From Ligustrum vulgare (Eukaryota > Streptophyta > Magnoliopsida > Lamiales > Oleaceae): DNA of 64,000 bases. Numbering within the stretch: position 1 is the stretch's first letter; each line of letters opens with the position of its first letter. Shown one piece after another: positions 13,307 to 48,212 of this stretch. A program made the position numbers and the translations under genes. The notes under the pieces are model-generated. The model made no database searches and had not been told where the DNA came from. It was given only the letters and a program-made list of their open reading frames with translations. The DNA lies in assembly GCA_963555705.1 (NCBI GenBank), contig OY743184.1:22232859-22296858 (forward strand), written 5' to 3'.

Positions 13307-13311
13307 CCCGC

Positions 13312-16300
13312 TGTAGCGCCCCGAGTTCCGTATACCCGATTCACTACGTCATTTTCTGTCTAAATTTTTCGAATAATATTTTTGCGGAAGAAATAATTGA
13401 AATTCATTGTTGGCAACATTAAATAAACTGTAATGGCCGCTAAAATTGAAAACATTTATGAAACCATTTGAAATAGTAAATCGAACCATTAATATTGTAA
13501 AGAAATTGCCAATATCATAATTTCTCAAATAAATGAACTTCTCTAAATTATTCGATTGTTTGGAAAATACGGAAATCATTAATGTCAAACTTTCAACCGT
13601 TCAACGATTATTGCCACCATCATTCATCGCTCGCCACCGTCTCCGAAATCTGCAAAACTGTTAAAAAGTAGGGTGAGTATTTCATGGGGGAAATACTCAG
13701 TAGACTCATCGCATATTAATTTAATTTATAAGATGATTAAACACATAAATCCCGGCTCTTTATAAAACGGGCATTGATAGAGCTTCTTTATAAAACTGCT
13801 CTTGATAAAACTCATATTGTGCATTACAGCACTGGACATATTTTGCAAATCATAGGCTCTTTGAAAATAGCTCTTTGAAAACAGCTCTTTGAAAACCATA
13901 TACTTATAAAAACATTTTAATTATGCCAAGCATAATTTCTTTTGAAAGCATAACATAAGATAGGATTGAAATCCTCATAAACATAAATAGACACAAGAAC
14001 TTTACCGAACTTAGGTGGCAAGAATTCTTATGCAGTAAAATCATAATAACAGTAAGTTTTCATCATAACGTAGGATAATATCGAAATCCTCATAAACATA
14101 AGAATTTTACCGAACTTAGGTGGCAAGAATTCTTATGTAGTAAGTATACCAAGCATAATTTTCTGAAATTCATAGGGATCAATTGCATCATAACATAAGA
14201 TAGGATCGAAATCCTCGTAAACATATGCGACAGGAATTTTACCGAACTTAGGTGGTAAATCCTCATAAACATATGGAAAGATAGGAATTTTACCGAACTT
14301 CGTGGCAATTCCTCATAAACATAGGAGACACAAGAATGTTACCGAACTTAGGTGGCAAGAATTCTTATGTGTAGCGCTACTAAAACTCCGGTCCCCTTAA
14401 CATATCATAACTTATCATATGGGACCCAAAACAATCTTGGTAGATTGATTTCATAGCAATGATCCAAAAAAACATTTTCGTGAAGCATAGGGTATACTTA
14501 CTTTTCGTAAAAACATAAAGTATATTTTCTTTTCATAAAAACATACTTACTTTTCATAACAACATAAGGTATATTTACCTTTCATAAAAACATACTTGTT
14601 TTTCTTAAAAATTGACTTTCACAAGTCACTTGACATTCATATGAAATCATAATTTAAATCAATTAATAAGTGCGAGTCTACCTCAAATCCGACGAGTGCA
14701 AAGTTGAGCGGGAATGACTTCAATTTCTTTAAATTCTCCGTACGCTTCGTCTTAGCCAATAAGTCACTTTAGTATATCGAATATATAGTTCAAAATGATA
14801 AATTATAATTTGAGGACTAAAATTGATGTTTTGAAAGTTGAGGGATTAAAATGAATACTTCTGAAAGTTCAGGGACTAAAATGAATATTTTCAAAAGTTG
14901 GGATTTAACATGAATATTTTGAAAGTTGAGGGATTAAAATGAATACTTTTGAAACTTGAGCTTAAAATCAAATAAAGTAAATCAGCAAGGACTGAAATGA
15001 TAAGTTTAAAAGCTGAAAGGACTGAAATAAAACCTTTTTTAAAACTTGGGGACTGATTTGAAAGGCTTTAAAACTTCAGGGACTGACGCGCAAATTTTGA
15101 AAGTTATTAAAATATATTATATCAAAACCTTTACTCTCTCTCTCATTCACTCTCTCACGACTGTCTCTCGAAATCGAACCAGAGAGAAGAAAGTTGCGAT
15201 CCACGTCGCTGGCGGCAATTTGCCGGTGAAATGCCGTGGTCGAGCGGCGGCGGTCAGAGTATGGTGCGAGTGTGAGGAAAATAGAGATGTTTTGGGTGGT
15301 TGGACGTGCAAAACCGAGGCAAATAACGAGGTTGTTGTTTGGTGATTGCCCGACGATACTCCATTCAAAATAGGTTAGTGACTGAGGTGTGTATCTGGGT
15401 TTCACTAAATTCTTGTTTTGGTTTTGATTTGGGTTCGATTTGAGCTGGTTGGAGGTGGCTGATTCGAAAATGGGTGATGAGTTGGTGGTGGTTGAAATGG
15501 TGAAGAAGGTAGCGATGGCATTGGGTGTTGACTCGTGGCTGCAAGCGGCGGCTGTAGTGTTTGGCAGCTAGTTGATGGTCGGCGAACTGGTGGTGAAAGG
15601 GCCGTAAATGGTTCGACAGTGGTGATGTTCATGATTTTGGCGTTGGCAGTGTTGTGGTTGAAAAATTGAGATGGCTATGGTGTATGAAATTTGATTTCTT
15701 GTGGTGCAGTGTTAAATTGGATGATGGAGATTCTGCAGTGAGGTTTGGATTGTGATTTCAGACAGTTGGCAGTGAATTTCCGGTGGTGATAAATTCTTAG
15801 TAGTGAATTGGTGATGGAGGTGATGATCATGCAGAGAGTTGAGATTTGCAGGCGTGCTGGGAATTGAAAATGACAAAGAAGGCTGGTGGTTAGACTGATG
15901 ATTCCAAACATGAAGGTGGGATGAAGGTATCTTTAAAGGAGAAAAGAAAGGAAAAGAAGAAGATTAATGGAGAATAAAAATCATTATGTTTAGTAGACAC
16001 ATGGGGTAGGATTGAATTGTGATAGCTTTGATTAATTGGTAGTGGTGTTCTTTGTTAGGTATAATAATAATAATGATGATAGTTTGTATGTGCAGGACGG
16101 AAGAATGCAAATTGAGTTTGATGTGGGTGAAGATATTGATTATTCAAATGATGGTGATATAGTGGATTGAAAGTGTGATAGGTGGAGTTGGTGAGGATGT
16201 GATGAGCATGATGAAGAACATATAAAATTAGAGGAAGAGATGTAGATAGTTAGGTATTAAGAAAAGTGGGAAAACATGGGGAATAATTAGTTGGTTTGTT

Positions 16301-16635
16301 GATGATGATGTTTTTGGACTGAAAATACATTTGAGAATAAATAGATTTTGAGATAAAATCGAATTACGTATTTGGACTTGAAATAATTTGAATAAGGAAA
16401 ATTGAGATATTTTAATAAATTTGGAATTCAAAATGATTTTGAAAATAATACTTTGAATAAATAATTAAAATAACATAATTTTAGAAATTCGAATTTTAAT
16501 TTAAAATCGAACAAATTCGATATTTCTTGACTTGGCTAGACGAATTCGTCGCGGCATTAATTTCAAAACAATAGCGACTCAATTTTCTAAATATTAAAAT
16601 AATTATTTATTGCATAAAAATTCTGGGTCGCTATA
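13312..16635 (-). repeat. LTR copy 1 (3' LTR in element orientation)
   Basis: On the plus strand it starts TGTAGCGCCCC and ends GGGTCGCTATA, so the termini are imperfect inverted repeats TGTAGCG/CGCTATA, and one end is TA rather than the usual CA. Within it, 13970-14370 carries about six copies of a 'ttaccgaacttaggtggcaa' motif. The part at 14810-15090 carries repeated 'gggactaaaatgaat' and 'gaaagttgaggg' phrases. The GT-rich strip at 15400-15860 gives several long but meaningless reading frames that recur in all three LTRs. Confidence 0.92.
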
Positions 16636-16648
16636 ATCTTACCCCCTT
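16636..16648 (-). other. Polypurine tract, internal copy 1
   Basis: Read on the minus strand it is AAGGGGGTAAGAT, directly abutting the LTR start. The inverted motif 'ttcgaggacgaaat' just upstream in element orientation is a familiar 3' signature of chromovirus-type gypsy elements. Confidence 0.85.
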
Positions 16649-17100
16649 AAAATAATTTCGTCCTCGAAATTAAACTTACTTAATCTTATGATTTCTGAAT
16701 ACTTAATCAGAATCTCTTCTTCTTCTTCTCTTATGTAGCATCATCGCTACCATATTTAACCCAAAATTCAGTAAACAAATATCTTCCAAATAACTAAGAT
16801 TCTTTACTTAAATGTTACCACATTTCATGCAAAGTATTTCTTTCACTTATACATACTTATAAATTCTGATTCAATACGGTCCTTATTTCTCTTTCACGTA
16901 TTCCCGTATCATCTCACTATACCTTGATTATTATTATTAAAACAAAATATCAGTACTCATAATCCAAGAAAATATTCCAAATCTCCAATCAAATCTCCTT
17001 TATCGATAAAATTTAACAGCGCATTACTTCTTGTCTCCTCTTTTCATTAAAATAATCCTGCGCTTTCTTGCTGGTCACAACATCACGCGGATTCACTCAG
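16649..17100. other. Retroelement 3' untranslated region next to the cargo genes
   Basis: AT-rich, with no reading frame of note. The homology with the second cassette at 44-46 kb begins only near 17080 ('cacgcgga'), so the cargo boundary lies there. Confidence 0.5.
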
Positions 17101-17111
17101 ATCCTTTGCGC

Positions 17112-17121
17112 TTTTAAATAG
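17112..17121 (+). promoter_or_regulatory. TATA-like box upstream of the NABP-like gene, copy 1
   Basis: TTTTAAATAG lies 33 bp before the ATG. The same element (TTTAAATAG, minus strand 45993-46001) is kept upstream of the broken homologue, and a third case lies upstream of LOG. This supports, but does not prove, a private promoter for the cargo on the strand opposite to the retroelement. Confidence 0.5.
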
Positions 17122-17153
17122 TTCATGCTGAGAAGAGGTTGAATCATCAAACA

Positions 17154-17705
17154 ATGGATATCATTCTTTCTAACATTCGCAAGTATTATTCCAGTCTTCC
17201 TATGAATGATCTGAGAAAGATCTATAAAATAAGGCTCGAAAGATTGAGGTTGCTGATGGCTCATGGTGTTCCAGAAGATGTTCGCTGGTTGATAGAAGCA
17301 AAGGTTCGACTATCTGGTGAATTACCATCAACATTTCCAAAGCACATGCCTGGTTTAGGCAAAAGCACTTTTGCAAAGAAACGAAGAGCAAAAAGACTGG
17401 GTGGTTGCTACAAATGTGCTCGTTGGAACTGTAATACTCGTTGCAAATCAGTAGGATATTCTTCTACTAATCGGGATGATAAAATCGAATTCATAAAGGG
17501 TGGACTGAGTAAAGAGTCTTTGGATGATATTCGACTGACTCTTGAGACGCACCCAAGTGGTTATGTACAACGTGAACTTCTCTCCTTATACGCTCAGTTT
17601 AACGAGGACAAAAATCGTTATAGTCTCCAAAATATAATATCGAAAGATCCTGTTTGCCAGTCTGTTTTACAAAATGAGGCTTCTGGCAGTTCAGCAATGA
17701 TATAA
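17154..17705 (+). CDS. Viral NABP-like basic Cys-rich protein, copy 1
   Basis: The gene encodes 183 residues from ATG 17154. A longer frame back to 17139 would need a TTG start, and the broken homologue at 45408-45961 starts at the same ATG. The N-terminal 65 residues are predicted helical (LRKIYKIRLERLRLLM, then VRWLIEAKVRL). Next comes a basic run (GKSTFAKKRRAKRLGG) and then a cysteine cluster C-x2-C-x4-C-x3-C at residues 85, 88, 93 and 97. The C-terminal third is helical with one more Cys. A basic arm before a compact Cys finger, with the K-S-T-F-A-K-x-R-R wording, resembles the nucleic-acid-binding proteins of carlaviruses and vitiviruses (Pfam Viral_NABP), which are usually 10-15 kDa; this one is longer. 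I infer RNA or DNA binding. It has no introns. LOG follows 343 bp downstream on the same strand. A plant zinc-knuckle protein of another family is the alternative. Confidence 0.7.
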   Translation: MDIILSNIRKYYSSLPMNDLRKIYKIRLERLRLLMAHGVPEDVRWLIEAKVRLSGELPSTFPKHMPGLGKSTFAKKRRAKRLGGCYKCARWNCNTRCKSVGYSSTNRDDKIEFIKGGLSKESLDDIRLTLETHPSGYVQRELLSLYAQFNEDKNRYSLQNIISKDPVCQSVLQNEASGSSAMI

Positions 17706-17760
17706 GGTAAATCTTTTGATATGCTTTTAAAATATTTTGCTGTTTTCTTTAACGCGTTTT

Positions 17761-17848
17761 GGAAATAAAAAAAATATTTTTCCTTTCTCGAGTTTTGATA
17801 AAGCTGGAAATAAATATATTTTCCTTTTTCTCGAGGTTTGATAAAGCT
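17761..17848 (+). repeat. Two 43-45-bp tandem repeats between the cargo genes, copy 1
   Basis: Units 17761-17805 and 17806-17848 both run from 'gaaataaa' through CTCGAG to 'gataaagct', and the start of a third unit follows. The equivalent gap in the broken cassette has its own short tandem repeat ('ttacttttgactaaatgac' at about 45196-45240). The gap between the two genes therefore tolerates repeat expansion. Confidence 0.8.
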
Positions 17849-17964
17849 GAAAATAAATCACCGAAAGGTGATATCTTTGATAAAATAGTCAAAAGTTGGC
17901 TGATTTTGTCAAAAAGTGAATCTTTACTTTTTCAGAATCAATCAAAAACAGTAAATTTTTCCGG

Positions 17965-17974
17965 CTTTAAATAG
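17965..17974 (+). promoter_or_regulatory. TATA-like box upstream of LOG, copy 1
   Basis: CTTTAAATAG lies 75 bp before the LOG ATG, a normal distance for a plant TATA box with a leader of some 40 nt. It nearly repeats the element in front of the NABP-like gene, so each gene may have its own start site. Confidence 0.5.
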
Positions 17975-18048
17975 CCAAACATATTTCATAGTTCAGGCAT
18001 CCCAAAATCACATCTTCTTCGTAAGTTTTCCCTTCTTTACTATCAAAG

Positions 18049-18702
18049 ATGGAAGCACCAAAACTTCGACAGATCAAAACTATTTGTGTATTTTGTGGAT
18101 CAAAAGTAGGGAAAGGCTTTGGTTATCTAGAAGCGGCTGTAGATCTTGGAAAGAAACTGGGGGAAAAAGGTATCACTCTTGTATATGGGGGTGGTAGCAG
18201 TGGTCTAATGGGTTGTGTTTCCCAATCTGCTCTTGCAGAGAAATCAAAAGTAATCGGTGTCATACCTGTCCCTTTGGTAGATGTTGCAGGAAAAACACGA
18301 GGGCATGAAGTTCAAACCTTATCCATCCATGAACGCATAACTTGTATGTTATATGGTTCTGATGCCTTTATAGCCCTGCCCGGAGGTTTTGGTACCTTAG
18401 AAGAAATCTTTAACATTACCTCGTGGGCTCAACTAGATCTCCATACTAAGCCTATTGGGCTTCTGAATGTTAACAATTTCTTTGATGGTTTGTTAACCTT
18501 TCTTGATTATGCTGTGGAACAGGGATTCATCTCTCCATTTTCCAGAAGGCTTCTTATTTCTGCTCCTACTATTGATGAACTACTGGATAAGCTGCAGTCA
18601 TATATCTCAATACAAGATCCAGCAGGAGTTAAAATAGATTGGTCGCAAGGAAGGGGAATCAAGCGAAAATGGAGTCCGGTTAATGTAAATTTAACTCTTT
18701 GA
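18049..18702 (+). CDS. LOG: LOG cytokinin riboside 5'-monophosphate phosphoribohydrolase, copy 1
   Basis: The 217-residue product has the full length of plant LOG proteins, which hydrolyse cytokinin nucleotides to the free active base plus ribose 5-phosphate, usually in cytosol and nucleus. Visible family marks are TICVFCGS (residues 11-18), YGGGSSGLMG (46-55), the HER segment (94-96) and the catalytic PGGFGTLEE (111-119), followed by TSWAQL and PIGLLNV. The usual Lys after HxR is Ile here (97), which could change activity. The gene is intronless, whereas plant LOG genes are normally split into several exons; a processed cDNA or viral origin would explain this. It lies inside an LTR retrotransposon, antisense to it, 343 bp after the NABP-like gene. 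The enzyme class is firm; activity and origin are not. Confidence 0.95.
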   Translation: MEAPKLRQIKTICVFCGSKVGKGFGYLEAAVDLGKKLGEKGITLVYGGGSSGLMGCVSQSALAEKSKVIGVIPVPLVDVAGKTRGHEVQTLSIHERITCMLYGSDAFIALPGGFGTLEEIFNITSWAQLDLHTKPIGLLNVNNFFDGLLTFLDYAVEQGFISPFSRRLLISAPTIDELLDKLQSYISIQDPAGVKIDWSQGRGIKRKWSPVNVNLTL

Positions 18703-18712
18703 ATCTTAGAAT

Positions 18713-18926
18713 AGGTGGGGGTAGAGTACGGAGTATTCTCACTCTCGAGACACCCCTCCATTTACTAGGATTTCCTTAATGTTTAAATCTTGTGTGTACT
18801 TCAAAGATTCCAGGTGGTAGATTACGGAGTATTCTTACTCTCGAAACACACCTCTTTGAAGGTTTCTTTATTTCCCAAAAAAAAATCAGAGGTGGTAGGA
18901 TACGGCTACTCCGGAAACACATCTCT
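18713..18926 (+). repeat. Three stem-loop repeats in the LOG 3' region, copy 1
   Basis: Imperfect repeats at 18713-18758, 18812-18854 and 18888-18926 share AGGTGG, then TACGG, then CTACTC or a TATTCTYACTC variant, then ACACMYCT. The first two can form an inner stem (GAGTA or GATTA with YACTC) and an outer AGGTG/CACCT-type stem. Two such repeats also follow the broken LOG at 44242-44400. They may act in 3'-end formation or as recombination leftovers. Confidence 0.65.
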
Positions 18927-18989
18927 CATTCTGAGGATCTTTCCATGTTTTTCTCTTATGCTTTCGTGTGTTTCATGTATTTCCTTTCC

Positions 18990-19885
18990 AGTGTGACTCT
19001 TGTGTGTTCTCCTTATGAGAAAATAATAAAATCTCTGCTATCATCTACTAAATCTCGTTTGTGATGTAAATGATCTTGCATGTCTAACCTTAATTCCTTT
19101 AGTGGATGCTTATCATATTATGCTCTTAATTCCAAATGATAAAATTCTGGATAGAGTCTCCCTTGTAATTTGGACTTATCCAAACCATAAGCATACTTCA
19201 TAACTCACAATAATAAATAACTCCAATTTGATCACAACGATCTAAAAATATTGAAAACGATTCCAACACTTCAATATCATCAAAATATCCATAATTCAAT
19301 TCATAATTCCTCAACATAGAAATTTCAAATCATATTTTTCAATATCACAATATCACTTCCTTCGATACCTTAATGGCTCAAAAGATAACTCATACTTATA
19401 AATATATGCCATAAATCATGTTCCCAAAATTTATTCTCAAGGCCAAACTTCATAATAAATTTCTCTTCAAAATAGAGGAAATAATTCACTTACTCAACAT
19501 AATATCCATTACTTAATTTTCAATAAAATCATATTATTCCCATTATGCTCAATACTCGTTTTCTTTCTAAAAAAAAAATTTCTCATAATCATACATTAAA
19601 GTATATAAGTTATGACAAAGCATAACAACATTATTATTTTCGAAGAAATACATTCTTATTTCTCATAAATCATAAGTATCCGAAATACTCTTCATTCTTT
19701 CTCATAAATCAGTAAAATGAGTATTCGAAATACTGAAATAACTTTAAACATCATAAACTTCTTTACCTCGGAGTTGGTGGAACGAATGATGGCAGTGGCA
19801 ATCTTCATCAATAATATTTTATAATGGAAAATATTTCTTGAAAATTCTTTTTGAAAATTTTTCCAGTCTACAGAAACGCAGACTA
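18990..19885. other. Non-coding remainder of internal region, copy 1
   Basis: AT-rich sequence between the cargo and the primer site with no meaningful reading frame. 'aataataaaatc' at about 19022 could serve as a polyadenylation signal for LOG. Confidence 0.45.
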
Positions 19886-19897
19886 GCTCTGATACCA
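19886..19897 (-). other. Primer-binding site for tRNA-iMet, internal copy 1
   Basis: On the minus strand it reads TGGTATCAGAGC, the exact complement of the 3' end of plant initiator methionine tRNA, three bases after the LTR end. It fixes the element's orientation as minus. Confidence 0.93.
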
Positions 19898-19900
19898 ACT

Positions 19901-22900
19901 TGTAGCGCCCCGAGTTCCGTATACCCGATTCACTACGTCATTTTCTGTCTAAATTTTTCGAATAATATTTTTGCGGAAGAAATAATTGAAATTCATTGTT
20001 GGCAACATTAAATAAACTGTAATGGCCGCTAAAATTGAAAACATTTATGAAACCATTTGAAATAGTAAATCGAACCATTAATATTGTAAAGAAATTGCCA
20101 ATATCATAATTTCTCAAATAAATGAACTTCTCTAAATTATTCGATTGTTTGGAAAATACGGAAATCATTAATGTCAAACTTTCAACCGTTCAACGATTAT
20201 TGCCACCATCATTCATCGCTCGCCACCGTCTCCGAAATCTGCAAAACTGTTAAAAAGTAGGGTGAGTATTTCATGGGGGAAATACTCAGTAGACTCATCG
20301 CATATTAATTTAATTTATAAGATGATTAAACACATAAATCCCGGCTCTTTATAAAACGGGCATTGATAGAGCTTCTTTATAAAACTGCTCTTGATAAAAC
20401 TCATATTGTGCATTACAGCACTGGACATATTTTGCAAATCATAGGCTCTTTGAAAATAGCTCTTTGAAAACAGCTCTTTGAAAACCATATACTTATAAAA
20501 ACATTTTAATTATGCCAAGCATAATTTCTTTTGAAAGCATAACATAAGATAGGATTGAAATCCTCATAAACATAAATAGACACAAGAACTTTACCGAACT
20601 TAGGTGGCAAGAATTCTTATGCAGTAAAATCATAATAACAGTAAGTTTTCATCATAACGTAGGATAATATCGAAATCCTCATAAACATAAGAATTTTACC
20701 GAACTTAGGTGGCAAGAATTCTTATGTAGTAAGTATACCAAGCATAATTTTCTGAAATTCATAGGGATCAATTGCATCATAACATAAGATAGGATCGAAA
20801 TCCTCGTAAACATATGCGACAGGAATTTTACCGAACTTAGGTGGTAAATCCTCATAAACATATGGAAAGATAGGAATTTTACCGAACTTCGTGGCAATTC
20901 CTCATAAACATAGGAGACACAAGAATGTTACCGAACTTAGGTGGCAAGAATTCTTATGTGTAGCGCTACTAAAACTCCGGTCCCCTTAACATATCATAAC
21001 TTATCATATGGGACCCAAAACAATCTTGGTAGATTGATTTCATAGCAATGATCCAAAAAAACATTTTCGTGAAGCATAGGGTATACTTACTTTTCGTAAA
21101 AACATAAAGTATATTTTCTTTTCATAAAAACATACTTACTTTTCATAACAACATAAGGTATATTTACCTTTCATAAAAACATACTTGTTTTTCTTAAAAA
21201 TTGACTTTCACAAGTCACTTGACATTCATATGAAATCATAATTTAAATCAATTAATAAGTGCGAGTCTACCTCAAATCCGACGAGTGCAAAGTTGAGCGG
21301 GAATGACTTCAATTTCTTTAAATTCTCCGTACGCTTCGTCTTAGCCAATAAGTCACTTTAGTATATCGAATATATAGTTCAAAATGATAAATTATAATTT
21401 GAGGACTAAAATTGATGTTTTGAAAGTTGAGGGATTAAAATGAATACTTCTGAAAGTTCAGGGACTAAAATGAATATTTTCAAAAGTTGGGATTTAACAT
21501 GAATATTTTGAAAGTTGAGGGATTAAAATGAATACTTTTGAAACTTGAGCTTAAAATCAAATAAAGTAAATCAGCAAGGACTGAAATGATAAGTTTAAAA
21601 GCTGAAAGGACTGAAATAAAACCTTTTTTAAAACTTGGGGACTGATTTGAAAGGCTTTAAAACTTCAGGGACTGACGCGCAAATTTTGAAAGTTATTAAA
21701 ATATATTATATCAAAACCTTTACTCTCTCTCTCATTCACTCTCTCACGACTGTCTCTCGAAATCGAACCAGAGAGAAGAAAGTTGCGATCCACGTCGCTG
21801 GCGGCAATTTGCCGGTGAAATGCCGTGGTCGAGCGGCGGCGGTCAGAGTATGGTGCGAGTGTGAGGAAAATAGAGATGTTTTGGGTGGTTGGACGTGCAA
21901 AACCGAGGCAAATAACGAGGTTGTTGTTTGGTGATTGCCCGACGATACTCCATTCAAAATAGGTTAGTGACTGAGGTGTGTATCTGGGTTTCACTAAATT
22001 CTTGTTTTGGTTTTGATTTGGGTTCGATTTGAGCTGGTTGGAGGTGGCTGATTCGAAAATGGGTGATGAGTTGGTGGTGGTTGAAATGGTGAAGAAGGTA
22101 GCGATGGCATTGGGTGTTGACTCGTGGCTGCAAGCGGCGGCTGTAGTGTTTGGCAGCTAGTTGATGGTCGGCGAACTGGTGGTGAAAGGGCCGTAAATGG
22201 TTCGACAGTGGTGATGTTCATGATTTTGGCGTTGGCAGTGTTGTGGTTGAAAAATTGAGATGGCTATGGTGTATGAAATTTGATTTCTTGTGGTGCAGTG
22301 TTAAATTGGATGATGGAGATTCTGCAGTGAGGTTTGGATTGTGATTTCAGACAGTTGGCAGTGAATTTCCGGTGGTGATAAATTCTTAGTAGTGAATTGG
22401 TGATGGAGGTGATGATCATGCAGAGAGTTGAGATTTGCAGGCGTGCTGGGAATTGAAAATGACAAAGAAGGCTGGTGGTTAGACTGATGATTCCAAACAT
22501 GAAGGTGGGATGAAGGTATCTTTAAAGGAGAAAAGAAAGGAAAAGAAGAAGATTAATGGAGAATAAAAATCATTATGTTTAGTAGACACATGGGGTAGGA
22601 TTGAATTGTGATAGCTTTGATTAATTGGTAGTGGTGTTCTTTGTTAGGTATAATAATAATAATGATGATAGTTTGTATGTGCAGGACGGAAGAATGCAAA
22701 TTGAGTTTGATGTGGGTGAAGATATTGATTATTCAAATGATGGTGATATAGTGGATTGAAAGTGTGATAGGTGGAGTTGGTGAGGATGTGATGAGCATGA
22801 TGAAGAACATATAAAATTAGAGGAAGAGATGTAGATAGTTAGGTATTAAGAAAAGTGGGAAAACATGGGGAATAATTAGTTGGTTTGTTGATGATGATGT

Positions 22901-23224
22901 TTTTGGACTGAAAATACATTTGAGAATAAATAGATTTTGAGATAAAATCGAATTACGTATTTGGACTTGAAATAATTTGAATAAGGAAAATTGAGATATT
23001 TTAATAAATTTGGAATTCAAAATGATTTTGAAAATAATACTTTGAATAAATAATTAAAATAACATAATTTTAGAAATTCGAATTTTAATTTAAAATCGAA
23101 CAAATTCGATATTTCTTGACTTGGCTAGACGAATTCGTCGCGGCATTAATTTCAAAACAATAGCGACTCAATTTTCTAAATATTAAAATAATTATTTATT
23201 GCATAAAAATTCTGGGTCGCTATA
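19901..23224 (-). repeat. LTR copy 2 (shared middle LTR)
   Basis: It repeats 13312-16635 with an exact 6589-bp shift; I found no difference at any place compared. It is bordered on both sides by element interior rather than by target duplications, so it serves both internal regions. Confidence 0.92.
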
Positions 23225-23237
23225 ATCTTACCCCCTT
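23225..23237 (-). other. Polypurine tract, internal copy 2
   Basis: It is the same AAGGGGGTAAGAT (minus strand) as at 16636-16648. Confidence 0.85.
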
Positions 23238-23700
23238 AAAATAATTTCGTCCTCGAAATTAAACTTACTTAATCTTATGATTTCTGAATACTTAATCAGA
23301 ATCTCTTCTTCTTCTTCTCTTATGTAGCATCATCGCTACCATATTTAACCCAAAATTCAGTAAACAAATATCTTCCAAATAACTAAGATTCTTTACTTAA
23401 ATGTTACCACATTTCATGCAAAGTATTTCTTTCACTTATACATACTTATAAATTCTGATTCAATACGGTCCTTATTTCTCTTTCACGTATTCCCGTATCA
23501 TCTCACTATACCTTGATTATTATTATTAAAACAAAATATCAGTACTCATAATCCAAGAAAATATTCCAAATCTCCAATCAAATCTCCTTTATCGATAAAA
23601 TTTAACAGCGCATTACTTCTTGTCTCCTCTTTTCATTAAAATAATCCTGCGCTTTCTTGCTGGTCACAACATCACGCGGATTCACTCAGATCCTTTGCGC

Positions 23701-23710
23701 TTTTAAATAG
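23701..23710 (+). promoter_or_regulatory. TATA-like box upstream of the NABP-like gene, copy 2
   Basis: It is identical to 17112-17121 and lies 33 bp before the ATG of the second copy. Confidence 0.5.
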
Positions 23711-23742
23711 TTCATGCTGAGAAGAGGTTGAATCATCAAACA

Positions 23743-24294
23743 ATGGATATCATTCTTTCTAACATTCGCAAGTATTATTCCAGTCTTCCTATGAATGATC
23801 TGAGAAAGATCTATAAAATAAGGCTCGAAAGATTGAGGTTGCTGATGGCTCATGGTGTTCCAGAAGATGTTCGCTGGTTGATAGAAGCAAAGGTTCGACT
23901 ATCTGGTGAATTACCATCAACATTTCCAAAGCACATGCCTGGTTTAGGCAAAAGCACTTTTGCAAAGAAACGAAGAGCAAAAAGACTGGGTGGTTGCTAC
24001 AAATGTGCTCGTTGGAACTGTAATACTCGTTGCAAATCAGTAGGATATTCTTCTACTAATCGGGATGATAAAATCGAATTCATAAAGGGTGGACTGAGTA
24101 AAGAGTCTTTGGATGATATTCGACTGACTCTTGAGACGCACCCAAGTGGTTATGTACAACGTGAACTTCTCTCCTTATACGCTCAGTTTAACGAGGACAA
24201 AAATCGTTATAGTCTCCAAAATATAATATCGAAAGATCCTGTTTGCCAGTCTGTTTTACAAAATGAGGCTTCTGGCAGTTCAGCAATGATATAA
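23743..24294 (+). CDS. Viral NABP-like basic Cys-rich protein, copy 2
   Basis: This is the second 183-residue copy, identical in translation to 17154-17705, with the same basic arm and the Cys cluster at residues 85-97. No substitution separates the copies, so selection cannot be judged from this pair. It starts at the ATG at 23743; the TTG start further upstream is not used, for the reason given for copy 1. Confidence 0.7.
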   Translation: MDIILSNIRKYYSSLPMNDLRKIYKIRLERLRLLMAHGVPEDVRWLIEAKVRLSGELPSTFPKHMPGLGKSTFAKKRRAKRLGGCYKCARWNCNTRCKSVGYSSTNRDDKIEFIKGGLSKESLDDIRLTLETHPSGYVQRELLSLYAQFNEDKNRYSLQNIISKDPVCQSVLQNEASGSSAMI

Positions 24295-24349
24295 GGTAAA
24301 TCTTTTGATATGCTTTTAAAATATTTTGCTGTTTTCTTTAACGCGTTTT

Positions 24350-24437
24350 GGAAATAAAAAAAATATTTTTCCTTTCTCGAGTTTTGATAAAGCTGGAAAT
24401 AAATATATTTTCCTTTTTCTCGAGGTTTGATAAAGCT
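24350..24437 (+). repeat. 43-45-bp tandem repeats between the cargo genes, copy 2
   Basis: It is the same two-unit repeat as 17761-17848. Confidence 0.8.
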
Positions 24438-24553
24438 GAAAATAAATCACCGAAAGGTGATATCTTTGATAAAATAGTCAAAAGTTGGCTGATTTTGTCA
24501 AAAAGTGAATCTTTACTTTTTCAGAATCAATCAAAAACAGTAAATTTTTCCGG

Positions 24554-24563
24554 CTTTAAATAG
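24554..24563 (+). promoter_or_regulatory. TATA-like box upstream of LOG, copy 2
   Basis: It is the same CTTTAAATAG as at 17965-17974, 75 bp before the ATG. Confidence 0.5.
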
Positions 24564-24637
24564 CCAAACATATTTCATAGTTCAGGCATCCCAAAATCAC
24601 ATCTTCTTCGTAAGTTTTCCCTTCTTTACTATCAAAG

Positions 24638-25291
24638 ATGGAAGCACCAAAACTTCGACAGATCAAAACTATTTGTGTATTTTGTGGATCAAAAGTAGGG
24701 AAAGGCTTTGGTTATCTAGAAGCGGCTGTAGATCTTGGAAAGAAACTGGGGGAAAAAGGTATCACTCTTGTATATGGGGGTGGTAGCAGTGGTCTAATGG
24801 GTTGTGTTTCCCAATCTGCTCTTGCAGAGAAATCAAAAGTAATCGGTGTCATACCTGTCCCTTTGGTAGATGTTGCAGGAAAAACACGAGGGCATGAAGT
24901 TCAAACCTTATCCATCCATGAACGCATAACTTGTATGTTATATGGTTCTGATGCCTTTATAGCCCTGCCCGGAGGTTTTGGTACCTTAGAAGAAATCTTT
25001 AACATTACCTCGTGGGCTCAACTAGATCTCCATACTAAGCCTATTGGGCTTCTGAATGTTAACAATTTCTTTGATGGTTTGTTAACCTTTCTTGATTATG
25101 CTGTGGAACAGGGATTCATCTCTCCATTTTCCAGAAGGCTTCTTATTTCTGCTCCTACTATTGATGAACTACTGGATAAGCTGCAGTCATATATCTCAAT
25201 ACAAGATCCAGCAGGAGTTAAAATAGATTGGTCGCAAGGAAGGGGAATCAAGCGAAAATGGAGTCCGGTTAATGTAAATTTAACTCTTTGA
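24638..25291 (+). CDS. LOG: LOG cytokinin riboside 5'-monophosphate phosphoribohydrolase, copy 2
   Basis: This 217-residue copy is identical in translation to 18049-18702, including PGGFGTLEE and the Ile in place of the usual Lys after HER. Doubling of the element has doubled the gene dose if the cassette is transcribed. It is intronless and antisense to the element, like copy 1. Confidence 0.95.
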   Translation: MEAPKLRQIKTICVFCGSKVGKGFGYLEAAVDLGKKLGEKGITLVYGGGSSGLMGCVSQSALAEKSKVIGVIPVPLVDVAGKTRGHEVQTLSIHERITCMLYGSDAFIALPGGFGTLEEIFNITSWAQLDLHTKPIGLLNVNNFFDGLLTFLDYAVEQGFISPFSRRLLISAPTIDELLDKLQSYISIQDPAGVKIDWSQGRGIKRKWSPVNVNLTL

Positions 25292-25301
25292 ATCTTAGAA
25301 T

Positions 25302-25515
25302 AGGTGGGGGTAGAGTACGGAGTATTCTCACTCTCGAGACACCCCTCCATTTACTAGGATTTCCTTAATGTTTAAATCTTGTGTGTACTTCAAAGATTCC
25401 AGGTGGTAGATTACGGAGTATTCTTACTCTCGAAACACACCTCTTTGAAGGTTTCTTTATTTCCCAAAAAAAAATCAGAGGTGGTAGGATACGGCTACTC
25501 CGGAAACACATCTCT
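25302..25515 (+). repeat. Three stem-loop repeats in the LOG 3' region, copy 2
   Basis: It is the same three repeats as 18713-18926. Confidence 0.65.
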
Positions 25516-25578
25516 CATTCTGAGGATCTTTCCATGTTTTTCTCTTATGCTTTCGTGTGTTTCATGTATTTCCTTTCC

Positions 25579-26474
25579 AGTGTGACTCTTGTGTGTTCTC
25601 CTTATGAGAAAATAATAAAATCTCTGCTATCATCTACTAAATCTCGTTTGTGATGTAAATGATCTTGCATGTCTAACCTTAATTCCTTTAGTGGATGCTT
25701 ATCATATTATGCTCTTAATTCCAAATGATAAAATTCTGGATAGAGTCTCCCTTGTAATTTGGACTTATCCAAACCATAAGCATACTTCATAACTCACAAT
25801 AATAAATAACTCCAATTTGATCACAACGATCTAAAAATATTGAAAACGATTCCAACACTTCAATATCATCAAAATATCCATAATTCAATTCATAATTCCT
25901 CAACATAGAAATTTCAAATCATATTTTTCAATATCACAATATCACTTCCTTCGATACCTTAATGGCTCAAAAGATAACTCATACTTATAAATATATGCCA
26001 TAAATCATGTTCCCAAAATTTATTCTCAAGGCCAAACTTCATAATAAATTTCTCTTCAAAATAGAGGAAATAATTCACTTACTCAACATAATATCCATTA
26101 CTTAATTTTCAATAAAATCATATTATTCCCATTATGCTCAATACTCGTTTTCTTTCTAAAAAAAAAATTTCTCATAATCATACATTAAAGTATATAAGTT
26201 ATGACAAAGCATAACAACATTATTATTTTCGAAGAAATACATTCTTATTTCTCATAAATCATAAGTATCCGAAATACTCTTCATTCTTTCTCATAAATCA
26301 GTAAAATGAGTATTCGAAATACTGAAATAACTTTAAACATCATAAACTTCTTTACCTCGGAGTTGGTGGAACGAATGATGGCAGTGGCAATCTTCATCAA
26401 TAATATTTTATAATGGAAAATATTTCTTGAAAATTCTTTTTGAAAATTTTTCCAGTCTACAGAAACGCAGACTA
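25579..26474. other. Non-coding remainder of internal region, copy 2
   Basis: It is the same as 18990-19885; no gene is seen. Confidence 0.45.
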
Positions 26475-26486
26475 GCTCTGATACCA
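26475..26486 (-). other. Primer-binding site for tRNA-iMet, internal copy 2
   Basis: It is TGGTATCAGAGC on the minus strand, three bases from the third LTR. This site, next to the outermost right LTR, would prime reverse transcription of the full transcript. Confidence 0.93.
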
Positions 26487-26489
26487 ACT

Positions 26490-29400
26490 TGTAGCGCCCC
26501 GAGTTCCGTATACCCGATTCACTACGTCATTTTCTGTCTAAATTTTTCGAATAATATTTTTGCGGAAGAAATAATTGAAATTCATTGTTGGCAACATTAA
26601 ATAAACTGTAATGGCCGCTAAAATTGAAAACATTTATGAAACCATTTGAAATAGTAAATCGAACCATTAATATTGTAAAGAAATTGCCAATATCATAATT
26701 TCTCAAATAAATGAACTTCTCTAAATTATTCGATTGTTTGGAAAATACGGAAATCATTAATGTCAAACTTTCAACCGTTCAACGATTATTGCCACCATCA
26801 TTCATCGCTCGCCACCGTCTCCGAAATCTGCAAAACTGTTAAAAAGTAGGGTGAGTATTTCATGGGGGAAATACTCAGTAGACTCATCGCATATTAATTT
26901 AATTTATAAGATGATTAAACACATAAATCCCGGCTCTTTATAAAACGGGCATTGATAGAGCTTCTTTATAAAACTGCTCTTGATAAAACTCATATTGTGC
27001 ATTACAGCACTGGACATATTTTGCAAATCATAGGCTCTTTGAAAATAGCTCTTTGAAAACAGCTCTTTGAAAACCATATACTTATAAAAACATTTTAATT
27101 ATGCCAAGCATAATTTCTTTTGAAAGCATAACATAAGATAGGATTGAAATCCTCATAAACATAAATAGACACAAGAACTTTACCGAACTTAGGTGGCAAG
27201 AATTCTTATGCAGTAAAATCATAATAACAGTAAGTTTTCATCATAACGTAGGATAATATCGAAATCCTCATAAACATAAGAATTTTACCGAACTTAGGTG
27301 GCAAGAATTCTTATGTAGTAAGTATACCAAGCATAATTTTCTGAAATTCATAGGGATCAATTGCATCATAACATAAGATAGGATCGAAATCCTCGTAAAC
27401 ATATGCGACAGGAATTTTACCGAACTTAGGTGGTAAATCCTCATAAACATATGGAAAGATAGGAATTTTACCGAACTTCGTGGCAATTCCTCATAAACAT
27501 AGGAGACACAAGAATGTTACCGAACTTAGGTGGCAAGAATTCTTATGTGTAGCGCTACTAAAACTCCGGTCCCCTTAACATATCATAACTTATCATATGG
27601 GACCCAAAACAATCTTGGTAGATTGATTTCATAGCAATGATCCAAAAAAACATTTTCGTGAAGCATAGGGTATACTTACTTTTCGTAAAAACATAAAGTA
27701 TATTTTCTTTTCATAAAAACATACTTACTTTTCATAACAACATAAGGTATATTTACCTTTCATAAAAACATACTTGTTTTTCTTAAAAATTGACTTTCAC
27801 AAGTCACTTGACATTCATATGAAATCATAATTTAAATCAATTAATAAGTGCGAGTCTACCTCAAATCCGACGAGTGCAAAGTTGAGCGGGAATGACTTCA
27901 ATTTCTTTAAATTCTCCGTACGCTTCGTCTTAGCCAATAAGTCACTTTAGTATATCGAATATATAGTTCAAAATGATAAATTATAATTTGAGGACTAAAA
28001 TTGATGTTTTGAAAGTTGAGGGATTAAAATGAATACTTCTGAAAGTTCAGGGACTAAAATGAATATTTTCAAAAGTTGGGATTTAACATGAATATTTTGA
28101 AAGTTGAGGGATTAAAATGAATACTTTTGAAACTTGAGCTTAAAATCAAATAAAGTAAATCAGCAAGGACTGAAATGATAAGTTTAAAAGCTGAAAGGAC
28201 TGAAATAAAACCTTTTTTAAAACTTGGGGACTGATTTGAAAGGCTTTAAAACTTCAGGGACTGACGCGCAAATTTTGAAAGTTATTAAAATATATTATAT
28301 CAAAACCTTTACTCTCTCTCTCATTCACTCTCTCACGACTGTCTCTCGAAATCGAACCAGAGAGAAGAAAGTTGCGATCCACGTCGCTGGCGGCAATTTG
28401 CCGGTGAAATGCCGTGGTCGAGCGGCGGCGGTCAGAGTATGGTGCGAGTGTGAGGAAAATAGAGATGTTTTGGGTGGTTGGACGTGCAAAACCGAGGCAA
28501 ATAACGAGGTTGTTGTTTGGTGATTGCCCGACGATACTCCATTCAAAATAGGTTAGTGACTGAGGTGTGTATCTGGGTTTCACTAAATTCTTGTTTTGGT
28601 TTTGATTTGGGTTCGATTTGAGCTGGTTGGAGGTGGCTGATTCGAAAATGGGTGATGAGTTGGTGGTGGTTGAAATGGTGAAGAAGGTAGCGATGGCATT
28701 GGGTGTTGACTCGTGGCTGCAAGCGGCGGCTGTAGTGTTTGGCAGCTAGTTGATGGTCGGCGAACTGGTGGTGAAAGGGCCGTAAATGGTTCGACAGTGG
28801 TGATGTTCATGATTTTGGCGTTGGCAGTGTTGTGGTTGAAAAATTGAGATGGCTATGGTGTATGAAATTTGATTTCTTGTGGTGCAGTGTTAAATTGGAT
28901 GATGGAGATTCTGCAGTGAGGTTTGGATTGTGATTTCAGACAGTTGGCAGTGAATTTCCGGTGGTGATAAATTCTTAGTAGTGAATTGGTGATGGAGGTG
29001 ATGATCATGCAGAGAGTTGAGATTTGCAGGCGTGCTGGGAATTGAAAATGACAAAGAAGGCTGGTGGTTAGACTGATGATTCCAAACATGAAGGTGGGAT
29101 GAAGGTATCTTTAAAGGAGAAAAGAAAGGAAAAGAAGAAGATTAATGGAGAATAAAAATCATTATGTTTAGTAGACACATGGGGTAGGATTGAATTGTGA
29201 TAGCTTTGATTAATTGGTAGTGGTGTTCTTTGTTAGGTATAATAATAATAATGATGATAGTTTGTATGTGCAGGACGGAAGAATGCAAATTGAGTTTGAT
29301 GTGGGTGAAGATATTGATTATTCAAATGATGGTGATATAGTGGATTGAAAGTGTGATAGGTGGAGTTGGTGAGGATGTGATGAGCATGATGAAGAACATA

Positions 29401-29813
29401 TAAAATTAGAGGAAGAGATGTAGATAGTTAGGTATTAAGAAAAGTGGGAAAACATGGGGAATAATTAGTTGGTTTGTTGATGATGATGTTTTTGGACTGA
29501 AAATACATTTGAGAATAAATAGATTTTGAGATAAAATCGAATTACGTATTTGGACTTGAAATAATTTGAATAAGGAAAATTGAGATATTTTAATAAATTT
29601 GGAATTCAAAATGATTTTGAAAATAATACTTTGAATAAATAATTAAAATAACATAATTTTAGAAATTCGAATTTTAATTTAAAATCGAACAAATTCGATA
29701 TTTCTTGACTTGGCTAGACGAATTCGTCGCGGCATTAATTTCAAAACAATAGCGACTCAATTTTCTAAATATTAAAATAATTATTTATTGCATAAAAATT
29801 CTGGGTCGCTATA
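26490..29813 (-). repeat. LTR copy 3 (5' LTR in element orientation)
   Basis: The third copy of the 3324-bp LTR ends GGGTCGCTATA and is directly followed by the target duplication CCCGC. Confidence 0.92.
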
Positions 29814-29883
29814 CCCGCCTCCGCCCCACACCAACCACCATCGACTACCAACTACTCCCAGCTCCACCACCACCACCACCACC

Positions 29884-44241: not shown

Positions 44242-44400
44242 AAAATCCTCAAAATTAGAGGTATGTCTCAAGAGTAAGAATACTCAGTACTCTTCCACCC
44301 CTTCTTTTTGAGGTTCACAAGGTTATGTTTAAACATTTATAAAATCCTCAAAATTAGAGGTATGTCTTAAGAGTAAGAATACTCCGTACTCTACCACCCT
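44242..44400 (-). repeat. Two repeats in the 3' region of the broken LOG
   Basis: Blocks at about 44242-44301 and 44340-44400, read on the minus strand, match the repeats behind the intact LOG: GGTGG, TACGGAGTATTCTTACTC (degraded in one block), then ACATACCTC. Each also contains CCTCAAAATTAGAGG, which can fold on itself. Confidence 0.65.
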
Positions 44401-44416
44401 CAATCTTTTTTGAGGT

Positions 44417-45068
44417 TCACAAGGTTAAATTTACATTAACCAGACTCCATTTTTGCTTGATTCCTCTTCCTTGCGACCAATATATAACTCCCGCTGGATC
44501 TTGTATTGGAATATATGATTATGACTTATCCAGCAGTTCCTTGATAGTAGGAGCAAAACTGAGGATCCTCCTAGAAAATAGAGAGATGAATCCATGTTCC
44601 ATAGCATAATCAAGAAATGTTAGTAAACCATCAAAGAAATTGTTTATACTTAAAAGCCCAATGAGTTTTGGTATGGAGATTCAACTGAGCCCATTAGGTA
44701 ATATTAAAGATTTCTTCTAAAGTACAAAAACCTCTGGACAGGGCTATGAAGGCATCAGAACCATATAGCATGCAAGTTATGCGTTCATGGATTGATAATG
44801 TCTGTACTTCATGCTCTCGTGATTTGCCTGCGATATTTGCCAAAGGAATAGGTATAACGCCTATCACTTTCACTTTCTCTATTTGAGTAGATTGAGAAAC
44901 GCAACCCATCAATACACTGCTACCTCCTCCATACACTAGATTGATACATTTATCTCCCAACTTCTTCCCTAGAAGCACTGCTGCTTCTAGATACCCAAAG
45001 TCTTTCCCAATTTTTTATCCAAAAAATATACAAATAGTTTTGATATGTCAAAGTTTTGATCCTTCCAT
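44417..45068 (-). pseudogene. Broken LOG homologue
   Basis: It aligns over its full length with the 217-codon LOG at 18049-18702; its own span is 652 bp against 654. Read against the intact copy, stops replace codons 7, 18 and 125, with further damage near codon 183 and a net 2-bp loss. The catalytic PGGFGTLEE has become SRGFCTLEE. The middle (residues 32-124) is still well preserved, including YGGGSSVLMG and IHERITCMLYGSDAFIAL. It keeps the Ile after HER seen in the intact copy, so both descend from one source that already had it. It lies 340 bp after the NABP-like remnant. Confidence 0.92.
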
Positions 45069-45407
45069 CTTTTGAGAGTATAAGGAAGGATAACTTATGA
45101 GAAAATTTTATTTTAGGATGCATGAAACTGTTAAAATATTTGGATTTTTAAAATCGAAAATCTTCACTATTCACCGCTCATCTTTTGAAAAAGTGACTAT
45201 TTACTTTTGACTAAATGACTATTTACTTTTGACTAAATGACACTACTTTTGATTATATCCCTGGCATCAATTTAATGCTCCATGATTGACACTCTTTGTT
45301 GGTGATCACTCAGTAACAGTCTATTAATACGCGAAAAATGAAAATATAAAATACTTTGTTAAAATATATATGTATACATATTAAACATTATACTGATTTA
45401 TCTTGTA

Positions 45408-45961: not shown

Positions 45962-46089
45962 CTTGATGGATCTAATCTTCTTCCCGAACGATCTATTTAA
46001 ATGCATTATTTAACACGCAAAAGAGCAGTGGCTCCGCGTGTCATTGATTCCACCAAGAAAAGGGGAAAGATTTGTAGACAAAATGGAGA

Positions 46090-48201: not shown

Positions 48202-48212
48202 TCAAGGGGGAG
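48202..48212 (+). other. Polypurine tract of the copia-like element
   Basis: TCAAGGGGGAG directly precedes the TGTTATAAAA start of the right LTR. Confidence 0.88.

What the first reader, a model, noticed from the sequence alone, without database searches (positions are those of the whole stretch)
16636..19900. An LTR retrotransposon interior replaced by an intact NABP-like plus LOG gene pair
Between a canonical iMet primer site and a polypurine tract there is no gag or pol, only two complete intronless genes on the opposite strand. A mobile element carrying a full-length cytokinin-activating enzyme with its own TATA-like box could spread a growth-regulating gene through the genome. Plant retroelements usually capture gene fragments, so a complete, undamaged pair is notable.
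Basis: partly seen in the sequence, partly recalled or inferred. Interest (0 to 1): 0.95.

Follow-up and report, generated by a model that had tools for sequence, protein, structure and literature searches.

The report
Mobile element carrying remodelled LOG gene
A very abundant plant retrotransposon without replication genes of its own carries two intact genes, one like a plant-virus nucleic-acid-binding protein and one derived from a cytokinin enzyme; the copies that spread appear to keep the second protein unchanged, so the element seems to need it, though its altered pocket and tail suggest a job other than ordinary cytokinin activation.

Summary
13312-29813 is LTR-interior-LTR-interior-LTR (unit 6589 bp, copies identical) inside a 5-bp CCCGC duplication, with an iMet primer site and polypurine tract on the minus strand and no gag or pol. 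Each interior carries an intact NABP-like ORF (183 aa) and LOG-like ORF (217 aa) on the plus strand. In the window's own genome (1.385 Gb) exact 27-mers of LOG and NABP occur 3,894 and 3,453 times, the primer-site/LTR junction 1,978 times. In 46 LOG copies, variants shared between copies are 20 synonymous: 0 nonsynonymous; single-copy variants are 19: 28 including 5 stops (Fisher p=1.4e-6): the protein is held by selection in lineages that spread and decays after insertion. Element-type LOGs form one clade among those sampled, keep the catalytic Arg and Glu, but mostly lack the Lys and Glu of the adenine/prenyl pocket and carry a basic-plus-LxLxL tail (LxLxL in 92 of 120; 0 of 120 LOG3-like host LOGs). 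'Cytokinin-activating' is therefore unproven; a nuclear regulatory role is my preferred, inferred, reading. LOG-like ORFs in plant Gypsy elements are already in print; my searches found no report of the NABP pairing, the tail or the pocket change.

The parts
13307..13311 (.). left target-site duplication CCCGC
   Evidence: same 5 bases at 29814-29818
13312..16635 (-). LTR copy 1 (3324 bp)
   Evidence: 100% identical to the other two LTRs
16636..19900 (-). interior of unit 1, no gag or pol
16637..16649 (-). polypurine tract (minus strand TAAGGGGGTAAGA)
   Evidence: read from the sequence
17113..17121 (+). TATA-like box TTTAAATAG, 41 bases before the NABP ATG (promoter function inferred)
   Evidence: unchanged in 17 of 18 other copies
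17154..17705 (+). NABP-like ORF, 183 aa
   Evidence: Pfam Viral_NABP 30.6 bits (cut-off 23) and Carla_C4 26.8 (20.9)
17406..17444 (+). Cys cluster CYKCARWNCNTRC of NABP, preceded by a basic stretch (KKRRAKR)
17966..17974 (+). TATA-like box TTTAAATAG, 83 bases before the LOG ATG (promoter function inferred)
   Evidence: unchanged in 18 of 18 other copies
18049..18702 (+). LOG-like ORF, 217 aa
   Evidence: Pfam PF03641 116 bits; PDB 2a33 (At2g37210) E=1.6e-57
18379..18405 (+). catalytic motif PGGFGTLEE of LOG
18649..18699 (+). C-terminal tail of LOG, predicted disordered: basic cluster then VNVNLTL (degenerate LxLxL)
19886..19897 (-). primer-binding site for initiator tRNA-Met (TGGTATCAGAGC on the minus strand; tRNA identity recalled)
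19901..23224 (-). LTR copy 2, shared by both units
23225..26489 (-). interior of unit 2, identical to unit 1
23743..24294 (+). NABP-like ORF, second copy
24638..25291 (+). LOG-like ORF, second copy
26490..29813 (-). LTR copy 3
29814..29818 (.). right target-site duplication CCCGC
44257..46004 (-). old, decayed copy of the same NABP-LOG pair (77-79% nucleotide identity, stops and frame breaks)

Best explanation
This is a young tandem insertion of a non-autonomous LTR retrotransposon family with thousands of copies, whose interior carries an antisense two-gene module under selection. SHOWN here: LTR, TSD, PBS and PPT anatomy; no gag-pol in this copy; thousands of copies; both ORFs intact in the window and in most sampled copies; no shared amino-acid change in LOG among 46 sampled copies; a conserved TATA-like box before each ORF; element-type LOGs monophyletic among those sampled, with the catalytic core kept, the base/prenyl pocket changed in nearly all and a basic + LxLxL tail in most. 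INFERRED: the element is moved in trans by a gag-pol partner. The two proteins are made from their own promoters and act in the nucleus: NABP as a carlavirus-CRP-like nucleic-acid binder (silencing suppression or gene regulation), the LOG-derived protein as an enzyme of changed specificity and/or a recruiter of TOPLESS-type corepressors through its tail, making the host cell more permissive for the element.
For: Structure. Copy number: 3,894 LOG 27-mers, 3,453 NABP 27-mers, 1,978 PBS junctions, reversed controls 0. Pairing: 83 of the first 100 LOG 27-mers on contig C1 have the NABP 27-mer upstream on the same strand. Selection: LOG shared variants 20 syn: 0 nonsyn, singletons 19 syn: 23 nonsyn: 5 stop, n=46, Fisher p=1.4e-6; divergence at LOG codon positions 1/2/3 0.0061/0.0003/0.0302 and NABP 0.014/0.009/0.040 in 18 copies; pN/pS 0.061 for LOG (n=20) and 0.171 for NABP (n=19). 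Spread: named relatives in Orobanche, Populus, Acer, Xanthoceras (NABP) and Reevesia, Diplodiscus, Diospyros, Populus, Xanthoceras, Primulina, Parasponia (LOG). Clade of 76 of 76, support 100. LxLxL in the last 14 residues 92 of 120 against 0 of 120; basic cluster 105 of 120 against 1 of 120; tail disordered in the model. Pocket: K100 kept in 5 of 115, E125 in 4 of 115, against 114 of 114 each in LOG3-like host LOGs; R99 108 of 115, E122 113 of 115. NABP family: 55 of 58 aligned sequences match Viral_NABP and 52 of 58 Carla_C4 at E up to 0.01.
Against: No transcript, small-RNA or protein data. The window's own tail is VNVNLTL, not a strict LxLxL. Cargo-less members exist (15 of 24 selected PBS sites), so the module is not needed in cis for transposition. 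No gag-pol partner was found. NABP is only moderately constrained: its shared variants (13 syn: 12 nonsyn) are less pure than its singletons (13: 3), and the two classes do not differ (p=1.0). Noncoding interior is not uniformly more diverged than the genes: 0.014-0.041 in five stretches, 0.089 only upstream of NABP, against 0.012 for LOG and 0.021 for NABP. The NABP model is poor (mean pLDDT 68, pTM 0.33), so fold-level kinship with viral CRPs is untested. The host control set holds only the 120 best matches to AtLOG3. Genomic context of relatives in other species could not be read. Wheat LOGs with the same critical residues differ in product (PMC11593424, passages), so residues predict activity only roughly.
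Confidence: 0.55

Rival explanations
1. The LOG is an ordinary cytokinin-activating enzyme; the element spreads by raising active cytokinin in meristem or germline precursor cells, with NABP as helper.
For: PGGxGTxxE motif, catalytic Arg and Glu and Trp129 kept; confident LOG fold model, mean pLDDT 86.7; extreme conservation of the protein.
Against: Lys100 and Glu125 (and Met96 in the window copy) of the proposed adenine/prenyl site (PMC4979012, passages read) are replaced; K100 and E125 are changed in 110 and 111 of 115 element-type LOGs though invariant in 114 of 114 LOG3-like host LOGs; the added tail is not needed for such a role.
Confidence: 0.2
2. The pair is a host-benefit gene family dispersed by the element: selection acts at the level of the plant (dosage of a LOG-like activity), not of the element.
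For: Very many intact copies; purifying selection.
Against: Singletons do not clearly depart from neutral (p=0.06) and 5 of 46 copies have a stop, so individual inserted copies seem not to be maintained; constraint lies in the lineages that transpose. The old copy in the window is decayed.
Confidence: 0.1
3. Neutral passenger: the cargo looks intact only because the whole family is a recent burst from one source.
For: Copies are young (window LTRs identical; the 38 other best-scored interior matches 94-97% alike).
Against: Copies differ by enough synonymous changes to test this, and shared changes are 20:0 where about 29% synonymous is expected with an assumed ts:tv weight of 4 (binomial p=1.9e-11); related ORFs occur in other eudicots at about 50-80% (NABP) and 48-63% identity, one at 93% (LOG).
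Confidence: 0.05
4. Assembly chimera or collapsed repeat produced the tandem array.
For: Units are 100% identical, the case that assemblers find hardest.
Against: Tandem arrays of differing unit length recur (8 arrays holding 18 of the first 100 LOG sites on C1; arrays of 4 and 5 units on C22, C9, C23), and the 3 arrays whose two edges I resolved, of 5 tried, have matching 5-bp duplications. The gene pair itself does not depend on the array.
Confidence: 0.08

Closest known systems
LOG/YgdH-bearing plant Ty3/gypsy elements (Citrus, poplar: PMC9289625; two Athila-like elements with LOGL4 similarity in Steinbauerova et al. 2011, the latter recalled, paper not held)
   Same: LOG-type extra ORF carried by a plant LTR retrotransposon
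   Different: here no gag-pol, paired with an NABP-like gene, thousands of copies, selection measured, tail and pocket changes described; lineage untestable without pol
Retand / Grande / RIRE2 elements with antisense ORFs (PMC11963269)
   Same: antisense accessory genes with suspected regulatory role and DNA-binding domain
   Different: their proteins carry TRP28 and other domains, and the words cytokinin, YgdH and NABP do not occur in the main text; Retand LTRs are 315-1,194 bp and the elements were found by their RT
LARD/TRIM non-autonomous elements, e.g. Cassandra tandem arrays (PMC7215508)
   Same: no gag-pol; LTR-interior tandem arrays
   Different: those lack protein-coding capacity (Cassandra, abstract); this one carries two selected genes
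Carlavirus cysteine-rich protein (Viral_NABP, Carla_C4)
   Same: basic stretch next to a Cys cluster; matches both Pfam models above cut-off
   Different: found in a retroelement, not an RNA virus; silencing suppression untested; direction of any transfer unknown
Plant LOG cytokinin riboside 5'-monophosphate phosphoribohydrolase
   Same: fold, PGGxGTxxE motif, catalytic Arg/Glu
   Different: intronless, changed adenine/prenyl pocket, basic + LxLxL-type tail

Membership tests
LTR retrotransposon | direct LTRs, 5-bp TSD, PBS, PPT | tested here: met
LTR retrotransposon | encodes gag and pol (autonomous) | tested here: not met
   no such ORF in the interior; in 24 sampled PBS sites (2.5 kb each) the 10 scanned open frames of 100 aa or more give only LOG or NABP Pfam matches or none; so this copy is non-autonomous
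LARD (large retrotransposon derivative) | long LTRs, no gag-pol, mobilised in trans | tested here: inconclusive
   first two met; trans-mobilisation inferred, no partner identified (inconclusive)
LARD (large retrotransposon derivative) | non-coding interior (as recalled) | tested here: not met
   two ORFs under purifying selection
Athila or Tat lineage | placement by reverse transcriptase phylogeny | not testable with these tools
   no pol in the element
LOG phosphoribohydrolase | PGGxGTxxE motif and catalytic Arg99/Glu122 | tested here: met
   window has both; 108 and 113 of 115 relatives
LOG phosphoribohydrolase | adenine/prenyl site residues Met96, His97, Lys100, Glu125, Trp129 | tested here: not met
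   window: Ile, His, Ile, Asn, Trp; element-type relatives keep them in 98, 68, 5, 4 and 114 of 115
LOG phosphoribohydrolase | converts cytokinin riboside monophosphates to bases | not testable with these tools
   needs an enzyme assay
Viral_NABP / carlavirus CRP | profile match above curated cut-off | tested here: met
   30.6 bits against 23; 26.8 against 20.9
Viral_NABP / carlavirus CRP | basic NLS next to zinc-finger-like Cys motif | tested here: met
   KKRRAKRLGGCYKCARWNCNTRC; a Cys motif of this type in 109 of 120 relatives; zinc binding and nuclear import untested
Viral_NABP / carlavirus CRP | RNA-silencing suppression | not testable with these tools
   none
EAR-motif (TOPLESS-recruiting) proteins | strict LxLxL | tested here: not met
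   window tail VNVNLTL; but 92 of 120 relatives strict
EAR-motif (TOPLESS-recruiting) proteins | binding to TPL/TPR | not testable with these tools
   none

The most novel reading that the evidence does not exclude
A plant retrotransposon lineage captured one LOG gene long ago and rebuilt it stepwise (basic tail, then LxLxL tail, then changed base pocket) into a nuclear factor that recruits host corepressors and/or consumes a different nucleotide, and keeps it beside a virus-type nucleic-acid-binding protein as a counter-defence module, the retrotransposon equivalent of a plant virus's pathogenicity genes.
Probability: 0.35. Interest if true: 0.9.

Novelty: new variant of a known kind. Interest (0 to 1): 0.74.

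Why it matters
Here a pair of complete genes, with relatives in several groups of eudicots, has multiplied to thousands of copies in one genome, with evidence that selection acts on the copies that transpose. That makes a long-standing question testable: what accessory proteins of plant LTR elements do. The family may also confuse gene annotation: some element-type relatives carry names such as LOGL10 or LOG3-like in databases, so surveys of LOG families may be counting transposon proteins whose pocket suggests another substrate.

Tried and rejected
Viral contigs: one scan of IMG/VR with the NABP protein, which finds close relatives only, gave 7 pattern matches and no relative. Gag-pol partner: the gag profile over the genome returned 150 scored of 27,688 candidates; none of the 10 hits on C1 lies within 20 kb of a PBS junction listed, by inspection, which settles nothing. 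RNA structure of the repeated stretch after LOG: z = -0.62, rejected. Rfam at gathering threshold on 13312-19950: no match. NABP profile against PDB: none. NABP AlphaFold model too poor to use. The idea of a fresh, single capture was rejected; that of a neutral burst.

Novelty statements rest on: LTR retrotransposon + LONELY GUY + antisense (1 paper), YgdH + retrotransposon (1, the same), LOGL4 + retrotransposon (0), at least 3 of carlavirus / nucleic acid binding / retrotransposon / gypsy (116, 20 listed, none by title about this), EAR motif + LxLxL + TOPLESS + retrotransposon (5, none by title about element proteins), LONELY GUY + EAR motif (18, 10 listed, none by title about a LOG tail). 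Most subscription papers are not held.
Full report
WHAT IS THERE. The stretch 13312-29813 is a tandem LTR-interior-LTR-interior-LTR structure. The unit is 6589 bp, the LTR 3324 bp, the interior 3265 bp; the 6589-bp shift gives 0 mismatches from 13312 to 23224 and identity stops exactly at the outer LTR ends. Both outer sides carry CCCGC; 5-bp duplications flank 93.4% of plant LTR elements in one survey, and tRNA-Met is its commonest primer, 39% (PMC6317226, passages). On the minus strand each interior starts with a primer site for initiator tRNA-Met (19886, 26475) and ends with a polypurine tract. There is no gag or pol; the only ATG-started ORFs of 120 aa or more in the interiors are two on the plus strand: an NABP-like protein of 183 aa, above the curated cut-offs of Pfam Viral_NABP and Carla_C4, and a LOG-like protein of 217 aa, best matched in the PDB by Arabidopsis At2g37210, LOG3. 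An old decayed copy of the pair lies at 44257-46004 on the other strand.

A FAMILY, NOT AN EVENT. In the window's own genome (1.385 Gb, 51 contigs), the best 40 scored interior matches are on many contigs; the 38 other than the window's own two are 94-97% identical over most or all of the interior. Exact 27-mers from the LOG catalytic motif and the NABP Cys cluster occur 3,894 and 3,453 times, the 25-base primer-site/LTR junction 1,978 times, reversed controls 0. On contig C1 up to 46.4 Mb, 24 of 31 such junctions have the LOG 27-mer in place, and 83 of 100 LOG 27-mers have the NABP 27-mer just upstream on the same strand.

CARGO-LESS MEMBERS. I fetched 2.5 kb at 24 junctions on C1, picked by eye from those without a 100% LOG at the expected place in the capped list. 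8 carry a full LOG, 1 the 3' part, 15 none. In 13 of those 15 the segment between 16979-17049 and 19039-19083 is replaced by several hundred bases of other sequence, so the module of about 17050-19038 (two TATA-like boxes, two ORFs, trailing sequence) behaves as a cassette. A scan of the 10 open frames of 100 aa or more left in these 24 after setting aside the plain LOG and NABP frames gave only LOG or NABP domains or nothing, so no gag or pol was seen in the first 2.5 kb; a partner elsewhere, or further in, is not excluded. The cassette is not needed in cis for movement.

SELECTION. Among 46 full LOG copies (the window, 18 chosen by DNA similarity, 8 at C1 junctions, 19 chosen by NABP similarity; L024 and L063 dropped as partial, L001 and L002 as the window's own), variants found in two or more copies are 20 synonymous, 0 nonsynonymous, 0 stop; variants in one copy are 19, 23 and 5. 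The two differ with Fisher p=1.4e-6, and the shared class departs from the neutral expectation (29% synonymous, assuming transitions weigh 4) with p=1.9e-11, while singletons do not clearly depart (p=0.06). This is what is expected if copies decay after insertion but only copies with an unchanged LOG protein give rise to new ones. Against 18 copies, divergence at LOG codon positions 1, 2, 3 is 0.0061, 0.0003, 0.0302 and at NABP 0.014, 0.009, 0.040; whole LOG 0.012, NABP 0.021; noncoding stretches range from 0.014 (5' leader of NABP, 41 bases), 0.016, 0.021, 0.026 and 0.041 to 0.089 upstream of NABP. So the codon pattern, not a general coding/noncoding contrast, carries the argument. NABP is less constrained: pN/pS 0.171 in the 19 copies not chosen by NABP, against 0.061 for LOG (20 copies; three more, L012, L013 and L029, were lost to an alignment-end filter that relaxed). 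NABP's shared and singleton classes do not differ in the expected direction (13:12 and 13:3; 18:13 and 16:11, where 20 of 39 copies were chosen by NABP identity). Both TATA-like boxes are unchanged in 17 and 18 of 18 copies.

SPREAD ACROSS PLANTS. NABP has 352 relatives at E up to 0.001 (120 listed), named ones from Orobanche, Populus, Xanthoceras and Acer; three Orobanche gene models carry NABP and LOG domains in one prediction (P0019, P0021, P0025), so the pair is adjacent there too. Of the 62 NABP and 42 LOG rows whose contig lengths I compared (of 120 and 120), five NABP/LOG pairs have exactly equal lengths, which suggests linkage; the chance rate was not computed. LOG has 7,230 relatives (120 listed); among the listed, named ones Reevesia is by far the commonest, with dozens of loci on many chromosomes, and Diplodiscus, Diospyros, Populus, Xanthoceras, Primulina and Parasponia occur. 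I call the 120 'element-type'; their genomic context could not be read here, and some may be host genes. In a tree with 38 host-type LOGs, AtLOG8 and a bacterial LOG, the window and 75 element-type sequences (70 at random plus hand-picked ones) form one clade with support 100. Host sampling was limited to the best matches of AtLOG3 and AtLOG8, so which host LOG was captured is open.

THE LOG HAS BEEN REBUILT. Using the residue roles in PMC4979012 (passages read), the element-type LOGs (115 of 120 after a length filter) keep catalytic Arg99 (108), Glu122 (113), the PGG-GT loop and Trp129 (114), Met96 in 98 and His97 in 68, but Lys100 in 5 and Glu125 in 4; all of these are invariant in the 114 host-type LOGs (of 120) except one loop glycine (111). 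The two change together: 4 of the 5 Lys-keepers keep Glu, and no other sequence does. Most also end in a basic cluster followed by LxLxL: strict LxLxL in the last 14 residues in 92 of 120, basic cluster in the last 32 in 105 of 120, both in 88; in the 120 host-type LOGs the numbers are 0, 1 and 0. In the tree three Xanthoceras sequences branch first, with the basic tail but no LxLxL and the pocket intact; P0161 is next, with LxLxL and the pocket intact; then comes a clade of 72 (support 100) in which Lys is changed (P0189, which keeps Lys, was not in the tree). In the window protein the tail reads KRKWSPVNVNLTL, a weakened form, and residues 201-217 are predicted disordered (pLDDT under 50) while the core is confident. 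LxLxL is the EAR corepressor-binding motif; that LxLxL-type EAR proteins bind TOPLESS is stated in PMC10942257 (passages read). That the tail here does so is inference.

NABP. 55 of 58 aligned sequences match Viral_NABP and 52 of 58 Carla_C4 at E up to 0.01. Carlavirus CRPs have an arginine-rich NLS next to a zinc finger and are described as silencing suppressors and pathogenicity determinants (PMC8742542, passages read). The element protein has KKRRAKR next to Cx2Cx4Cx3C. Whether virus or element had it first is unknown.

TANDEM ARRAYS. 8 arrays hold 18 of the first 100 LOG sites on C1, against 1 opposite-strand neighbour pair in the same distance range; arrays of 4 and 5 units occur on C22, C9 and C23. 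Of five arrays looked at, three had both edges resolved (window CCCGC, C22 CCTTA, C23 AAATA) and all three have matching 5-bp duplications; for C9 and a C1 array the left edge was missed. This fits one insertion followed by unequal exchange between LTRs, or integration of a concatemer; similar arrays are known for Cassandra (PMC7215508, abstract read).

KNOWN AND NEW. A YgdH/LOG domain in Citrus and poplar Gypsy consensuses is in print (PMC9289625, passages read), citing Steinbauerova et al. 2011, which I recall as reporting two Athila-like elements with LOGL4 similarity (paper not held). Antisense accessory ORFs are known from Retand, Grande and RIRE2 (PMC11963269, outline, parts 1-2 of 5 and passages read; PMC7264820, passages). 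In the searches listed under Tried and rejected I found no report of the NABP partner, of selection on such a LOG, of the pocket change or of the tail. Hence 'new variant of a known kind'.

SOURCE. Hits were seen on contigs C1 to C23, of chromosome size where a length was shown, in a genome of 1.385 Gb; with many of the closest named NABP relatives in Orobanche this suggests an asterid, possibly the olive family. That is a guess from recall of chromosome numbers.

Noticed in passing
window 13312-29813; G000 C22:1306427-1326777, C23:10311292-10338627, C9:10258304-10285519: Head-to-tail arrays of 2 to 5 units sharing LTRs recur in this family; the three whose edges were both read sit inside a single 5-bp target duplication.
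   Followed up: partly
L023, L025, L026, L028, L030, L034-L036, L038-L042: Cargo-less members in which the NABP-LOG cassette is replaced by several hundred bases of unidentified sequence at nearly the same breakpoints.
   Followed up: partly
window 38518-39600 and 50348-51448: Inverted arms about 94% alike flank the decayed NABP-LOG copy at 44-46 kb; may be two opposite insertions of another repeat.
   Followed up: no
window 41924-42616: Three tandem copies of a 229-bp unit (98%), with a related stretch near 48212.
   Followed up: no
window 29848-30243 (-): Copia-type gag fragment (Retrotran_gag_3) directly beside the array, with its own iMet primer-site match at 30138: the array may have landed in a copia element.
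   Followed up: no
window 61428-62534 (-): 369-aa open frame matching Pfam Transposase_32, putative plant transposon protein.
   Followed up: no
window 18703-18945: Imperfect repeats of about 42 bases follow LOG and recur in the decayed copy; the stretch shows no significant fold (z -0.62).
   Followed up: partly
P0125, P0180, P0217, P0176: Public annotations name element-type proteins 'LOGL10' or 'LOG3-like', so LOG gene surveys may include transposon genes.
   Followed up: no
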